The position numbers were made by a program, and so were the translations under genes. The notes under the pieces are model-generated. The model was not told the origin of the DNA. It did not search any database and was given only the letters and a program-made list of their open reading frames with translations. Shown one piece after another: positions 10,361 to 50,265 of a DNA stretch of 64,000 bases (the stretch's first letter is position 1; each line of letters begins with the position of its first letter). This DNA comes from Chromobacterium haemolyticum DSM 19808 (lineage in GTDB: Bacteria > Pseudomonadota > Gammaproteobacteria > Burkholderiales > Chromobacteriaceae): contig NZ_JONK01000014.1 in NCBI RefSeq assembly GCF_000711885.1, positions 58,568 to 122,567 of the forward strand. The letters are read 5' to 3'.

Positions 10361-10399
10361 TGTGGATAAGCACGGTATTGCGCCAAACCCTGTGGATAA
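10361..10399. other. Pair of perfect DnaA boxes
   Basis: TGTGGATAA at 10361-10369 and again at 10391-10399, same orientation, start-to-start distance 30 bases, between repeat copy A and the solute-binding protein gene. The spacing matches that in the array near 50.1 kb. Confidence 0.65.
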
Positions 10400-21966: not shown

Positions 21967-23229
21967 TCAGGCCTGCAACTTGCGGCGAAACAGAGCGCTC
22001 ATGCGCTGGCTGGCCCCGCTATGGGCGCCGCTGAAGGCCAAGGCCGATTCGCGCATCGACTGGCGGCGACCTTCGTCGCCCAACAGCTCCACCACAGCGC
22101 CGATCAACTCCGTAGCGTTGGCCACCTGGCGCGCGGCGCCGGCGGCCAGCGCCAGCGCCGCCGCCTGTTTGAAATTGAAAATGGACGGGCCAAACAACAC
22201 CGGCACGCCCACGCTGGCCGGCTCGATCAGATTATGACAGCCCAACGGCAGCAAACTGCCGCCGACAAAGGCCAGATCGCCGCAAGCGAAGTAGGCGAAC
22301 GCTTCGCCCATGCTGTCGCCCAGCCATACCTGGGTGGCGGGGTCCACCGCGGCATCGTCGCTGCGGCGCTGTACTTTCAGGCCGCGGCTCTCGGCCAGCG
22401 CGGCCACATCGTCGAACCGCTCCGGATGACGAGGCACCAACACCAGCAGCGCGTCGCCCAACGCTTGAGCCGCCGCCCGCCACGCATCAAGAATCAAGGC
22501 TTCCTCACCGTCGCGGGTGCTGGCGCAGACCATAACCCGGCGGCGGCCTATCCTGGATTTGAACTCGCCGGCCAGCGTCAGCTGCGCCGGCGCCGGCTGA
22601 ATATCGTACTTGGTGTTGCCGCAGACTTCGACTTCGCTTGCGCCCAATTGCCGCAAACGTTCGCCATCTTCCGGCGTTTGCGCGGCAACAGCGCTCAACG
22701 CCGCCACCGCGGGTGAAATCAGCCCGCTGATTTTGAGATAACCGTTCAGGGATTTTTCAGACAAGCGCGCATTGGCCAGAAACAAGGGCACCTTCTGCTC
22801 GGCGGCGGTATGAATCAGATTGGGCCACAGCTCGGTCTCCATCAACACGCCCAAGCGCGGCTGATAGGCGGCGAGGAAAGCCTGCGCGGCTTGGGGATAA
22901 TCGTAGGGCAGATAGCGCACTTCGGCATCGGGATACAGCTGCAAGGCGGTGGCGCGCCCGGTGGGGGTCATCTGCGTCATCAGCAAGGGCGCGTCCGGCC
23001 AGACTTCGCGCAACGCCGCCACCAAGGGCTGCGCGGCCCGGGTTTCGCCCACCGATACCGCGTGTATCCAAATCGCTCCCTGCGCGCGCGGCTGCAATTG
23101 ACTGCCGAAACGCTCGTCCCAATGCTCCAGATAGGCCGGCGCCTTGCGCGCCCGCTTCTTCAGGTAGTGCCGCACCAGCGGGGTGGCCAGCAGCCAGGCC
23201 CAGGAATACAGTCTGCGTTGCCAATTCAT
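21967..23229 (-). CDS. waaA: 3-deoxy-D-manno-octulosonic acid transferase (Kdo transferase)
   Basis: GT30 inner-membrane-associated enzyme that transfers Kdo from CMP-Kdo to lipid IVA, starting the LPS core. The 420-residue product has an N-terminal membrane anchor (LYSWAWLLATPLVRHYL), the acceptor-side catalytic motif IWIHAVSVGETRAAQPLV with its glutamate, MTQMTPTGRA, and METELWPNL. The C-terminal donor domain has GGSLLPLGCHNLIEPA. The start ATG at 23229 overlaps the waaC stop by four bases (ATGA), so translation is coupled; a longer frame to 23313 lies inside waaC. A GC hairpin at 21851-21873 is the nearest possible transcript end. Confidence 0.95.
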   Translation of the reverse strand: MNWQRRLYSWAWLLATPLVRHYLKKRARKAPAYLEHWDERFGSQLQPRAQGAIWIHAVSVGETRAAQPLVAALREVWPDAPLLMTQMTPTGRATALQLYPDAEVRYLPYDYPQAAQAFLAAYQPRLGVLMETELWPNLIHTAAEQKVPLFLANARLSEKSLNGYLKISGLISPAVAALSAVAAQTPEDGERLRQLGASEVEVCGNTKYDIQPAPAQLTLAGEFKSRIGRRRVMVCASTRDGEEALILDAWRAAAQALGDALLVLVPRHPERFDDVAALAESRGLKVQRRSDDAAVDPATQVWLGDSMGEAFAYFACGDLAFVGGSLLPLGCHNLIEPASVGVPVLFGPSIFNFKQAAALALAAGAARQVANATELIGAVVELLGDEGRRQSMRESALAFSGAHSGASQRMSALFRRKLQA

Positions 23230-24188
23230 GTCCAGTCCTTGCGCGTGAACAAGGCTTGCAGCGCCTCGTCCACAGACGGGCACAGCCCGATTCCGCCCAA
23301 ATTGGTGGCCCACGGCGTTTCCACCACGCCCGTGGCGGCCGGATCCGTATCCGTGTAAATCGCCGCCAGGGGCACGTTCAGCGCGTTGGCCAGGTGAGTC
23401 AGCCCGGTATCCACGCCCACCACCGCGTTGGCGTGGCCAAGCAGGCCGGCGGCCTCGATCAGATTCATCTTGGGCGCCACCACCACGGCCGGCATCTGCG
23501 CGGCCAGCCTTTCGGCGCGCTGGCGCTCGCGATCATTGCCCCAGGGCAGCACCATCACCAGATCATGCTGCATGGACAAGCGTTTGCCCAGTTCCACCCA
23601 ATGGCCTTCCGGCCACTCTTTGGACGTTTTGCTGGTGGCGTGCAGCAATACCGCGTAACGGCCGGACAGCACCCAGCCTGGCCGCTCGCCGGCCGGCACG
23701 CCAAAACGGGGCGCGCCCTGGGGCTGATAACCAAATACCCGCGCGAACAACAGACGGTTGCGTTCTATCGCCGACAAGCTCCAGTCCACCTTGTGACGCT
23801 TATCGTAAAAACAGCTGGCCAACGATTCCCTCGCGCTGCCCCATCCGTAGCCGGTCAGCGGCGCCTTGGCCCAACTGGCCGGCAAGGCGCTTTTCAACAA
23901 GCCCTGGCTGTCCACCACCAATTCCCAAGGCGTGTCGCGCAGTTGCCGCCGCAAGGCCCGGATCTCTCGCCAGGTGGACGGCAGCCACCAGCGCTTGCTC
24001 CAGCGCCGCCAATTCAAGGCAATCACCCTGTCCACCGCCGGATGCAAACGGGCAATGTCGGCGAAAGCCTCTTCGGCCAGCCAACTGATGCGGAAATTGG
24101 GGTAATGCGCTTTCAGCTCGGAAATGGCGGGCCAAGTGTGGATAAGGTCGCCCATCGACGAGGTGCGCACAATCAGCACATTCATCAT
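23226..24188 (-). CDS. waaC: Lipopolysaccharide heptosyltransferase I
   Basis: GT9 enzyme adding the first L-glycero-D-manno-heptose to Kdo in the inner LPS core. The product of about 320 residues begins MMNVLIVRTSSMGDLIHTWP, the hallmark start of WaaC. It contains ELVVDSQGLLKSAL, HATSKTSKEWP and the ADP-heptose site VGVDTGLTHLANAL. Starts at 24197, 24188 and 24185 are all in frame and none has a good ribosome binding site; 24188 is a compromise. A perfect DnaA box lies within the coding sequence at 24137-24145. It is followed by overlapping waaA. Confidence 0.94.
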   Translation of the reverse strand: MMNVLIVRTSSMGDLIHTWPAISELKAHYPNFRISWLAEEAFADIARLHPAVDRVIALNWRRWSKRWWLPSTWREIRALRRQLRDTPWELVVDSQGLLKSALPASWAKAPLTGYGWGSARESLASCFYDKRHKVDWSLSAIERNRLLFARVFGYQPQGAPRFGVPAGERPGWVLSGRYAVLLHATSKTSKEWPEGHWVELGKRLSMQHDLVMVLPWGNDRERQRAERLAAQMPAVVVAPKMNLIEAAGLLGHANAVVGVDTGLTHLANALNVPLAAIYTDTDPAATGVVETPWATNLGGIGLCPSVDEALQALFTRKDWT

Positions 24189-24638
24189 GGCGCGCATTGT
24201 ACCCGAGCATGCCTGTGGTTAACCAAGTAAAATCCCTGCAGTTCAATTGTGGATAAACAGCTGTGGACAACTAGGTTCGGATTTATCCACAATTTGCGAT
24301 GCCGCAGCGCACCCAAACTATCCAAAGCCCATCAACAGGACAAGTAACTGAACCCTTTGAAGTTTTTGTCGCTTATCCACAGCAATGGCCAACTATATCA
24401 GTTTCATCAATATAAAATTGCGTTAAAGAGTTATCGGTGGCGTAAGAAGGTTCGCAGACAAATTTACGCCATGCACAAGCAAGTGGGAACAAATGGGATC
24501 GGGCCTGTGGACAAGTGGTAACTTCAAGGAACAGTCAGATTTATCCACAAGTCTTCAGTCTGCAAAAAGATGGATGAACAACAAGATTCCAGCTAATCCA
24601 ACACCATGAAAACAATGTGAAAAACATAGTTATCCACA
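24137..24638. other. DnaA-box cluster in an AT-rich gene-free gap (origin-like or datA-like)
   Basis: Perfect DnaA boxes (TTATCCACA or complement) at 24137-24145, 24248-24256, 24283-24291, 24373-24381, 24541-24549 and 24630-24638. One-mismatch boxes are at 24214-24222, 24262-24270 and 24506-24514, both orientations mixed. The gap 24198-24696 holds no gene and is AT-rich: 24361-24420 is 33% GC (20 of 60), including ACTATATCAG and ATCAATATAAAATTG, like a DNA-unwinding element. dnaA, dnaN, rpmH and mnmG are absent, so this is probably not the main oriC; a DnaA-titration or secondary initiation site is more likely. Confidence 0.75.
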
Positions 24639-24696
24639 GCAAAGAGACGACTTCTACCAGTTTCTTCAAATTACATATGGGAAAACATATAACAAG

Positions 24697-25452
24697 ATGC
24701 GTGCGCGAATAAGCGTGGTGCTAATCACCAAGAATGCGGAAACTTCGTTGGAAAAATGTTTGGACAGCGTGGGCTTCGCCGATGAAATCGTGCTTGTGGA
24801 TTCAGGCAGCACGGACAGGACATTGGCGATAGCTTCCGCCTATAAGGCAAAAGTTATCCACCAAGACTGGCTGGGATTCGGTCCTCAGAAGCAATTGGCG
24901 GTAGAAGCCGCCAGCCACGACTGGGTGTTGTGTCTGGATGCCGACGAGTGGCTTTCCCCTGATTTGATCAATGAAATCAAAGTCATGCTGGACAATCCAC
25001 AGGCCAAGGCCTTTCAGTTTCCGCGTTGCAACCGTTTCATGGGCCGTTTTCTGAAACACGGCGAAGGTTATCCGGACTGGTCTTTACGCTTGTTCCATCG
25101 CGGACATGCGCGCTGGTCGGATGATCTGGTGCATGAGTACGTGATCTCCAACGGCCCTGTGCATAAGCTGCGGCACGAACTGATGCACGAGTCCGGCGAA
25201 GACATCGCGCTATATCTGAACAAGCAGAACCGCTACACCAGTTTGCAGGCTGAACGGCTTTTTCAACGGGGAAAACGTGTGGGTATCGCGAAACTTATCC
25301 TCAGCCCCTTGCTGCGCTTCATCAAGTTCTACTTTTTCCGCCGTGGTTTTCTCGATGGCGTGCCCGGTTTGGTCCACATCAGCATCGGCTGCTTCAACAG
25401 CTACATCAAATACGCCAAATTGATCGAACTACGACGGTTGAAAAGCAAATAG
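24697..25452 (+). CDS. waaE: LPS core glycosyltransferase, family 2 (WaaE/KdtX type)
   Basis: Cytosolic-face GT2 enzyme of 251 residues that, in this family, adds glucose to heptose I of the LPS inner core. The nucleotide-sugar fold is visible as ISVVLITKNAETSLEKCLDS, EIVLVDSGSTDRT and the DxD-type motif LCLDADEWLS (about 75-84). The C-terminal half has RLFHRGHARWSDDLVHE and a basic amphipathic stretch (LLRFIKFYFFRRGF) for membrane association. It is divergent from waaC-waaA across the DnaA-box region, which supports an LPS-core role. The exact acceptor is inferred. Confidence 0.86.
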   Translation: MRARISVVLITKNAETSLEKCLDSVGFADEIVLVDSGSTDRTLAIASAYKAKVIHQDWLGFGPQKQLAVEAASHDWVLCLDADEWLSPDLINEIKVMLDNPQAKAFQFPRCNRFMGRFLKHGEGYPDWSLRLFHRGHARWSDDLVHEYVISNGPVHKLRHELMHESGEDIALYLNKQNRYTSLQAERLFQRGKRVGIAKLILSPLLRFIKFYFFRRGFLDGVPGLVHISIGCFNSYIKYAKLIELRRLKSK

Positions 25453-25976: not shown

Positions 25977-25985
25977 TTATCCACA
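25977..25985. other. Perfect DnaA box at the S66 peptidase ribosome binding site
   Basis: TTATCCACA at 25977-25985 directly abuts and overlaps the AGGAGA that serves the S66 peptidase start. DnaA bound here could affect the promoter or transcript of the downstream gene; it may also be an outlier of the 24-kb cluster. Confidence 0.55.
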
Positions 25986-30899: not shown

Positions 30900-30997
30900 C
30901 AGCTCACTCCGGAGGGGCTTGTCGCCGCAAGAAAAACGCGGCGGCGTGTCATGACGATAACTTGCGATTATCCCACATTTGCCGTACCTTCACAGCA

Positions 30998-31133
30998 TCG
31001 CTAGGGGTCCTGCGCGACGGTCGGCAAGATGATCCATATCCTTGAAAGGATAGGATAATCGTTAAAGATTGTTGCGCGGGTGAGAAACACCCTTGGAACC
31101 TGACCCGGATAATACCGGCGTAGGGAAGCGTAA
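30998..31133 (+). promoter_or_regulatory. TPP riboswitch (THI element) of thiC
   Basis: Conserved aptamer pieces in order: GGGGTCCTGCGC (from 31004), GCGCGGGTGAGA (31074-31085), ACACCCTTGGAACCTGACCC, GGATAATACCGGCGTAGGGA ending at about 31128. TGAGA and the GGATAA...GCGTAGGGA segments are the pyrimidine- and pyrophosphate-sensing cores. The optional arm between is long (about 31016-31073) and holds its own hairpin, TATCCTTGAAAGGATA. It should switch off thiC when thiamine pyrophosphate is plentiful. Confidence 0.93.
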
Positions 31134-33137
<2,004 letters not shown>

Positions 33138-49468: not shown

Positions 49469-50146
49469 ATGCAGATTGCCCTGAGCCCCGCCTTATTGTC
49501 CCGCCTGCCGCAGATCCAGGTAAGTGGTTTGATCGCGCTGGATATCAACGCCGCCGCTTTGCCCGCGCGGCTGCCGACCTTGCCGGAGCCGGAACGCGAT
49601 CTGGACGAGTTGTTGCAAGCCTGGAAGCAGATGTACAAGGACTTGCCCGGCGACAAGAAAGCGCGCTGTTCGCTGGAATACCTGGTCAAGGCGGCGCAGA
49701 AGGACAAGCTGCGCAGCATCCTGCCGCTGGTGGACTTGTACAACCAGGCGTCCTTGCTGAGCCTGAGTCCGTTTGGCGGCGAGGACATCGTCAAGCTGGG
49801 CGGCGTATTGCAATTGGACCTGGCCGTCGGCGACGAGCCTTTTCTGCCGCTGGGAAGGGATCAAGCGGAGACGCCGCAGCCGGGCGAGGCGGTATGGCTG
49901 AACGGCGAACGACAGGTGGTGTGCCGTTGCCTGAACTGGCTGGAGTCGGACTTGTTCAAATTGGACGCCGGCAGCCGCGACGTGGTCTTCGTCAGCGAGC
50001 GGCCGGACGGCGGTTTTCCTTCCGGCGCGGCGGGCATGGACTGGCTGGCCGAGCAGCTGCGGCCGCATGCCGGGCAGCTGGTTCGTTTCGAGCTGGACGC
50101 GGCGCGGACTAGTTTTGAGCTGGCTGCTGTGGATAAAGTGGCGTAA
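49469..50146 (+). CDS. Free-standing B3/B4 (PheRS beta-type) domain protein
   Basis: Cytosolic protein of 225 residues resembling the B3/B4 editing domain of phenylalanyl-tRNA synthetase beta. Seen are VSGLIALDINAAALP, DLPGDKKARCSLEYLVKAAQ, LRSILPLVDLYNQASLLSL, GGEDIVKLGGVLQLDLA and VVCRCLNWLESDLFKL, in the order typical of stand-alone members. These are thought to hydrolyse or bind mis-acylated tRNA or amino-acid-like ligands; the substrate is unknown. The shorter start at 49469 was chosen because upstream sequence lacks family similarity. The last codons overlap the first DnaA box of the array at 50128. Confidence 0.85.
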   Translation: MQIALSPALLSRLPQIQVSGLIALDINAAALPARLPTLPEPERDLDELLQAWKQMYKDLPGDKKARCSLEYLVKAAQKDKLRSILPLVDLYNQASLLSLSPFGGEDIVKLGGVLQLDLAVGDEPFLPLGRDQAETPQPGEAVWLNGERQVVCRCLNWLESDLFKLDAGSRDVVFVSERPDGGFPSGAAGMDWLAEQLRPHAGQLVRFELDAARTSFELAAVDKVA

Positions 50147-50265
50147 GCATGCTGGCTTGTGGATAAGCCGCGCTAGCCGCTTGTCGATACGGACGTCATT
50201 TAGCGGATGTGTGGCGCGACGGCGAGCTGTGGATAAAAAGGCTGGATAGCTTTTTCTGTGGATAA
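50128..50265. other. Array of four perfect DnaA boxes, all in one orientation
   Basis: TGTGGATAA at 50128-50136 (in the end of the B3/B4 gene), 50158-50166, 50228-50236 and 50257-50265. Start-to-start distances are 30, 70 and 29 bases. The array sits between convergent genes, next to a bidirectional terminator. It resembles DnaA-titration or DnaA-reactivation sites more than a promoter. Confidence 0.72.

What the first reader, a model, noticed from the sequence alone, without database searches (positions are those of the whole stretch)
24137..24862. DnaA-box cluster in an AT-rich gap between waaC and waaE
Six perfect TTATCCACA boxes and three one-mismatch boxes occur within about 500 bp, plus TTATCCACC at 24854-24862 inside waaE. 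The 24198-24696 gap has no gene and is strongly AT-rich, with an unwinding-element-like stretch near 24390-24435. By chance well under one perfect box per 64 kb is expected. Without dnaA, rpmH or mnmG nearby, the best reading is a datA-like titration site or a secondary origin.
Basis: partly seen in the sequence, partly recalled or inferred. Interest (0 to 1): 0.82.

Follow-up and report, generated by a model that had tools for sequence, protein, structure and literature searches.

The report
Chromosome replication origin far from dnaA
This stretch between two genes of a Chromobacterium genome carries a conserved cluster of DnaA-binding motifs at the point where the strand composition of the DNA flips, so it is likely the place where the whole chromosome starts to be copied, although the gene for the starter protein DnaA is on another contig here and 75 to 296 kb away in 14 related genomes.

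Summary
The boxes are real, and the best reading is the primary chromosomal origin (oriC), not a datA-like site or secondary origin. Cumulative GC skew of the window, and of its 122.6-kb contig, is lowest at window base 24408, inside the cluster. In a relative of 4,751,080 bp (by recalled length Chromobacterium violaceum ATCC 12472) the minimum over the first 400 kb is at 238,322, about 1.5 kb past the orthologous cluster and 236 kb from dnaA; samples turn sign near 2.6 Mb, opposite. dnaA is 75-296 kb from the cluster in 14 of 14 genomes of one or two contigs. The cluster stands upstream of waaE in 49 of 49 loci examined (49 of 61 family genomes), its boxes being islands of conservation, and beside waaC in a second family. 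One box lies inside waaE, kept in 46 of 49 loci. Tandem perfect box pairs spaced 29 or 30 bp lie around the origin: 35 in six Chromobacterium genomes, all within the first 36% of the way to the terminus. They may titrate DnaA. Nothing was tested at the bench.

The parts
24137..24145 (-). DnaA box, perfect, inside the 5' end of waaC
   Evidence: mean identity 0.95 over 50 aligned sequences
24214..24222 (-). variant DnaA box TTAACCACA, conserved as the variant
   Evidence: 0.98
24248..24256 (-). DnaA box, perfect; head to head with 24283, 26 bp between
   Evidence: 0.99
24262..24270 (-). variant DnaA box TTGTCCACA
   Evidence: 0.76
24283..24291 (+). DnaA box, perfect
   Evidence: 0.97
24373..24381 (+). 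DnaA box, perfect, next to the AT-rich stretch
   Evidence: 0.94
24394..24433 (.). AT-rich stretch, probable DNA unwinding element; weakest 40-mer duplex of the window and place of the cumulative GC-skew minimum (24408)
24506..24514 (-). variant DnaA box TTGTCCACA
   Evidence: 0.91
24541..24549 (+). DnaA box, perfect
   Evidence: 0.98
24586..24639 (.). second AT-rich stretch, alternative unwinding element: holds the weakest 40-mer in most of the 18 of 50 sequences where it is not the first stretch
24630..24638 (+). DnaA box, perfect
   Evidence: 0.97
24854..24862 (+). DnaA box TTATCCACC inside the waaE coding sequence (codons Val-Ile-His)
23226..24197 (-). waaC, lipopolysaccharide heptosyltransferase I, left neighbour
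   Evidence: TIGR02193, 385.5 bits, cut-off 185.3
   Evidence: PF00535; no NCBIfam model reached its cut-off
10361..10399 (-). tandem perfect DnaA-box pair, 30 bp apart, about 14 kb from the cluster
50128..50166 (-). tandem perfect DnaA-box pair, 30 bp apart, about 26 kb from the cluster, at the 3' end of a gene convergent with its neighbour
50228..50265 (-). tandem perfect DnaA-box pair, 29 bp apart, between the same convergent genes

Best explanation
The cluster between waaC and waaE is most likely the primary chromosomal replication origin (oriC) of this Chromobacterium, and it lies on a different contig from dnaA. Inferred steps: DnaA would bind the ten boxes, which run from the waaC start into the waaE coding sequence, oligomerise, open the AT-rich stretch near 24394-24433 (or that near 24586-24639), and load the helicase for two forks. 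The tandem box pairs spread around the origin would bind spare DnaA, double in number soon after initiation, and so help to delay re-initiation in a genus where SeqA was not found.
For: Cumulative GC skew is lowest at window base 24408, for the window and for the whole 122,567-bp contig; 12 of 12 left 2-kb blocks are negative and 16 of 19 right blocks positive. In the 4,751,080-bp relative the minimum over bases 1-400,000 is at 238,322 (boxes at 236,334-236,834), with dnaA at 635; 20 of 24 ten-kb blocks before 240 kb are negative, 16 of 16 after it positive, and 19 of 20 spaced samples fit a second switch at 2.56-2.66 Mb, the opposite pole being 2.61 Mb. In 5 further genomes the right flank is positive in 5 of 5, the left negative in 4 of 5, and the stretch between cluster and dnaA keeps the sign of its own side in 5 of 5. 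49 of 49 waaE-orthologous loci carry 6 to 10 boxes at up to one mismatch; perfect boxes average 0.94-0.99 identity, the gap 0.60. In a second family, 5 fetched loci keep waaC beside the cluster, 3 of them with waaE on the other side. Box in waaE kept in 46 of 49 loci. SeqA 0 of 4 genomes, E. coli control positive.
Against: No binding or replication data. Left of the window, bases 1-56,000 of the contig show no negative skew (6 of 14 four-kb blocks negative). The dnaA contig goes from negative to near zero about 20 kb before dnaA, with one block of +0.096 just before it, so a local change there is not excluded in this genome. In G016 the stretch beyond dnaA has the contrary sign, and in G059 the left flank is +0.003. 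The weakest duplex is the proposed unwinding element in only 32 of 50 sequences. No IHF consensus was found in 24000-24800. Ten of 61 family genomes were not examined for a cluster.
Confidence: 0.93

Rival explanations
1. A datA-like site: a box cluster that holds or inactivates DnaA, while the real origin is at dnaA.
For: dnaA is on another contig; the cluster has many perfect boxes; an order rnpA, dnaA, dnaN as at many origins is present at the dnaA locus (translations, named by eye).
Against: The cluster, not dnaA, is at the skew minimum of its contig and of the first 400 kb of the 4.75-Mb relative. dnaA loci have at most one box. No IHF consensus found.
Confidence: 0.04
2. A secondary or former origin beside the main one at dnaA.
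For: Separation from dnaA; family-wide conservation.
Against: One sign switch between dnaA and 400 kb in the relative, at the cluster, and one opposite switch at 2.56-2.66 Mb; a main origin at dnaA should leave a switch there. The boxes are under strong conservation, which a dead origin would not be.
Confidence: 0.02
3. The boxes regulate transcription of waaC and waaE, DnaA acting as a transcription factor.
For: The boxes lie between divergently transcribed genes.
Against: The cluster persists where waaE is gone from its side (G016; waaC-cluster-ung in two loci of a second family), and regulation does not account for the skew switch. A regulatory side effect is not excluded.
Confidence: 0.01

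Closest known systems
Escherichia coli oriC (between mnmG/gidA and mioC; recalled, and named as gidA-mioC)
   Same: DnaA-box cluster with an AT-rich unwinding element, apart from dnaA; a TTATCCACA box stands 5' of the AT-rich stretch as R1 does (polarity recalled).
   Different: Neighbours are waaC and waaE; one GATC in the 499-bp gap and no IHF consensus found; no SeqA found; one box lies inside a coding gene.
Predicted oriC of Laribacter hongkongensis (PMC3135505, passages read)
   Same: A predicted origin with eight DnaA boxes in what I recall to be a related betaproteobacterium.
   Different: The passages give no position, neighbours or comparison; the two were not aligned.
Origin-proximal excess of DnaA boxes in E. 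coli (PMC12371093, abstract, section 6 and passages read)
   Same: Boxes enriched near oriC, argued to serve titration.
   Different: Here many are perfect boxes in tandem pairs at a fixed 29 or 30 bp; the words tandem and spacing do not occur in that paper's main text.
datA, DARS1 and DARS2 of E. coli (PMC4585315, passages read)
   Same: Non-coding groups of DnaA boxes away from oriC, at conserved distances from it.
   Different: Those are single loci with three or more boxes and IHF or Fis sites; the pairs here are two boxes, several per genome, and their activity is untested.

Membership tests
Bacterial chromosomal origin (oriC) | Cluster of DnaA boxes beyond chance | tested here: met
Bacterial chromosomal origin (oriC) | Lies at the GC-skew minimum, with the opposite switch across the chromosome | tested here: met
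   own contig: minimum at window 24408; both switches in the 4.75-Mb relative, sampled; the own genome as a whole not testable in 63 contigs
Bacterial chromosomal origin (oriC) | AT-rich unwinding element beside the boxes | tested here: met
   weakest 40-mer of the window at 24394; in relatives the same stretch in 32 of 50; unwinding itself not tested
Bacterial chromosomal origin (oriC) | Conserved boxes among relatives | tested here: met
Bacterial chromosomal origin (oriC) | Replication starts there; DnaA binds | not testable with these tools
   needs marker-frequency and ChIP data
datA | IHF site among the boxes | tested here: not met
   no match to the recalled consensus on either strand of 24000-24800; a divergent site is possible
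datA | Promotes hydrolysis of ATP bound to DnaA | not testable with these tools
   biochemical
datA/DARS-like sites (for the tandem pairs) | Non-coding box groups at conserved places relative to oriC | tested here: inconclusive
   all 35 pairs lie in the first 36% of the way to the terminus and one place is shared with G028, but the first box at 50128 overlaps a gene end and other places differ

The most novel reading that the evidence does not exclude
Chromobacterium restrains initiation with a built-in titration halo: 2 to 11 DnaA-box pairs per genome (18 of 19 genomes of the genus), held at 29 or 30 bp and confined to the origin-proximal third of the chromosome, form a new class of two-box DnaA sink that doubles just after initiation, in a bacterium without a detectable SeqA, around an origin whose boxes reach into a neighbouring coding gene.
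Probability: 0.4. Interest if true: 0.72.

Novelty: new member of a known kind. Interest (0 to 1): 0.5.

Why it matters
It places the likely replication origin for a family in which dnaA is 75 to 296 kb away, while at least three of the records used here begin at dnaA (G028, G038, G041). Replichore, gene-dosage and growth-rate estimates that take dnaA as the start would then be shifted. The fixed box pairs also offer a natural test of initiator titration, since they can be removed one by one.

Tried and rejected
A datA-like site, a secondary origin and a promoter-only role were weighed and set aside (see rivals). An IHF consensus (recalled) was sought in 24000-24800 and not found. Dam/SeqA sequestration: one GATC in the gap, no SeqA in 4 genomes. 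KOPS-type octamers were too few to help. DnaA-trio motifs were looked at by eye only and are not claimed. A mobile-repeat reading of the tandem pairs: spacers differ between pairs of one genome in the list, and 80 spacers picked by eye from that capped list (79 from the window's genus, not all of them) show preferences mainly next to the boxes. A chance reading of the box in waaE: its three codons are invariant in 30 of 30 loci, GTT makes only 10 of 177 Val codons elsewhere in the stretch, and 7 of 60 fully conserved residues have an invariant codon; 3 of 49 loci lack the box. Composition as the cause of the origin bias of boxes: the reversed motif, 79 places in five genomes, is mildly origin-biased too (mean 43% of the way to the terminus, 2,184 of 100,000 uniform draws as low), so part of the bias of lone boxes (mean 30%) may be compositional; the pairs (mean 10%) go well beyond it. 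Tandem pairs are not universal: 37 of 61 family genomes have one, 24 have none. Protein-database search and structure prediction were not used. Rfam gave only a TPP riboswitch, ARAGORN no tRNA.

Papers: eight searches. I saw no description of the Chromobacterium origin in their listings; those showed 20 of 195 and 20 of 161 papers, the library holds open-licence papers only, and the DoriC database could not be consulted, so a prediction may exist there.

Full report
WHAT IS THERE. The cluster is as described. The window holds 13 perfect TTATCCACA boxes: six within 502 bp at 24137-24638, six in three tandem pairs (10361, 50128, 50228) and one at 25977. The genome has 42 in 5.03 Mb against 7 for the reversed motif. 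The gap is 41.7% GC in a 62.9% window, and of 63,960 forty-mers of the window none has a weaker duplex than the one at 24394. The left neighbour is heptosyltransferase I, waaC, with a Kdo transferase next to it. Its closest named relatives are in C. haemolyticum and C. alkanivorans (94%) and C. aquaticum (90%), so the window is from a Chromobacterium.

IT SITS AT THE SKEW SWITCH. Cumulative GC skew is lowest at window base 24408, both for the window and for the whole 122,567-bp contig C12. In the window 12 of 12 left 2-kb blocks are negative and 16 of 19 right blocks positive. Further left, bases 1-56,000 of the contig are mixed (6 of 14 four-kb blocks negative), which does not help the case. 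The genome is in 63 contigs, so I turned to relatives. G028 is one contig of 4,751,080 bp, the recalled length of C. violaceum ATCC 12472. Its dnaA match starts at 635 and its cluster is at 236,334-236,834. Over bases 1-400,000 the minimum is at 238,322; 20 of 24 ten-kb blocks up to 240,000 are negative and 16 of 16 after it positive. Of 20 spaced 20-kb samples, 10 of 11 up to 2.56 Mb are positive (2.30 Mb is -0.003) and 9 of 9 from 2.66 Mb are negative; the point opposite the cluster is 2.61 Mb. In five more genomes (G002, G003, G016, G056, G059) the 20 kb right of the cluster is positive in 5 of 5, the 20 kb left negative in 4 of 5 (G059 +0.003), and the stretch between cluster and dnaA keeps the sign of its own side in 5 of 5. 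Beyond dnaA that holds in 4 of 5; G016 is contrary, perhaps by an inversion.

dnaA IS ELSEWHERE. dnaA (TIGR00362) is on contig C27. In 14 of 14 family genomes of one or two contigs it is 75 to 296 kb from the cluster, circularity assumed (positions). In G024, without a close waaE orthologue, the cluster was placed by three perfect boxes, two of them head to head. Of 15 dnaA loci, 13 have exactly one box at up to one mismatch; the other two (G038, G041) are cut at the record start. In this genome's dnaA contig the skew goes from negative to near zero some 20 kb before dnaA, with one positive block of 4 kb just before it.

CONSERVATION. waaE has a match in 61 of 61 family genomes. I examined the 49 with an orthologous locus (30, 19): 49 of 49 carry 6 to 10 boxes at up to one mismatch, 2 to 7 of them perfect. 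Of the other 12, G016 (read) and G024 (box list) have a cluster and 10 were not examined. In an alignment of 50 sequences (49 plus G016) the perfect boxes average 0.94-0.99 identity to the window, TTAACCACA 0.98, the two TTGTCCACA 0.76 and 0.91, and the gap as a whole, boxes included, 0.60. In a sample of 300 genomes of the order, 18 have a perfect head-to-head pair 24 to 28 bp apart: 5 of the own family, 5 of a second family, 8 of others. In the 5 of the second family, waaC stands beside the cluster each time, with waaE on the other side in 3 and ung in 2 (genes named by eye from translations). The 8 others were not followed up. So the origin has stayed beside waaC while its other neighbour changed.

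A BOX INSIDE A GENE. TTATCCACC was found at this place of waaE in 30 of 30 loci; its codons GTT ATC CAC are invariant, while the commonest codon of 60 fully conserved residues averages 74%. Among 19 further loci, 14 have TTATCCACC, 2 perfect TTATCCACA, 3 none. In one of the 14 (G007) the frame of waaE is broken, yet the box stays. I infer that the origin extends into waaE.

THE HALO OF PAIRS. In this genome, with 0 to 30 bp allowed, 7 of 7 pairs have 20 or 21. In six Chromobacterium genomes of one or two contigs the 35 pairs lie at 0.4% to 35.3% of the way from origin to terminus, 19 within 5%; none of 100,000 uniform draws had so low a mean. Some pairs are orthologous between genomes (the pairs at 50128 and 50228 lie between the same convergent genes as one of G028), so they are not independent and that number overstates the evidence. 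Ninety-nine lone boxes in five genomes average 30%; the reversed motif averages 43%, 79 places, so a small part of the bias is compositional. I read the pairs as DnaA sinks; binding is untested.

HOW IT WOULD WORK. Shown: sequence, position, conservation. Inferred: DnaA binds the boxes, opens 24394-24433 or the alternative 24586-24639 (the first is the weakest stretch in 32 of 50 sequences) and loads the helicase. SeqA was not found in 4 genomes. A short PF00308 protein on contig C3 looks like Hda (named by eye), and the box pairs could add titration, as argued for E. coli (PMC12371093).

KNOWN OR NEW. Origins away from dnaA are known; [quoted passage not shown] A predicted oriC with eight boxes is reported for Laribacter (PMC3135505, passages). 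I also saw passages of PMC5043019 and PMC4585315. My searches showed no paper on the Chromobacterium origin, with the limits told under Tried and rejected. Hence a new member of a known kind, with the paired-box halo as the open, more novel part.

Noticed in passing
window 10361-10399, 50128-50166, 50228-50265; G000 C12:47199-47236 and contigs C25, C36, C37: Tandem perfect DnaA-box pairs 29 or 30 bp apart, in 37 of 61 family genomes and, in six Chromobacterium genomes, only in the origin-proximal 36%.
   Followed up: partly
G000 C3:221156-221191; also G016, G021, G022, G024, G028: One inverted perfect pair (TTATCCACA, 18 bp, TGTGGATAA) in each of these genomes; in G000 it lies just past a phosphatase-like gene (by eye). 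Perhaps a terminator hairpin.
   Followed up: no
L202:1456-1578: In a genome of a second family the origin has five and four boxes (up to one mismatch) in tandem at 11 to 12 bp, head to head across 26 bp, unlike the Chromobacterium layout.
   Followed up: no
window 24326-24350: A conserved non-box block around ATCAACAGGACAAGTAAC in the origin, perhaps a site for another protein.
   Followed up: no
window 24799-24862: Upstream of the box in waaE the codons GAT, ATA (rare) and TAT are also invariant in 30 of 30 loci, hinting that the constraint on DNA reaches further; ATA is not kept in all of 19 further loci.
   Followed up: partly
window 30993-31143: TPP riboswitch upstream of thiC.
   Followed up: no
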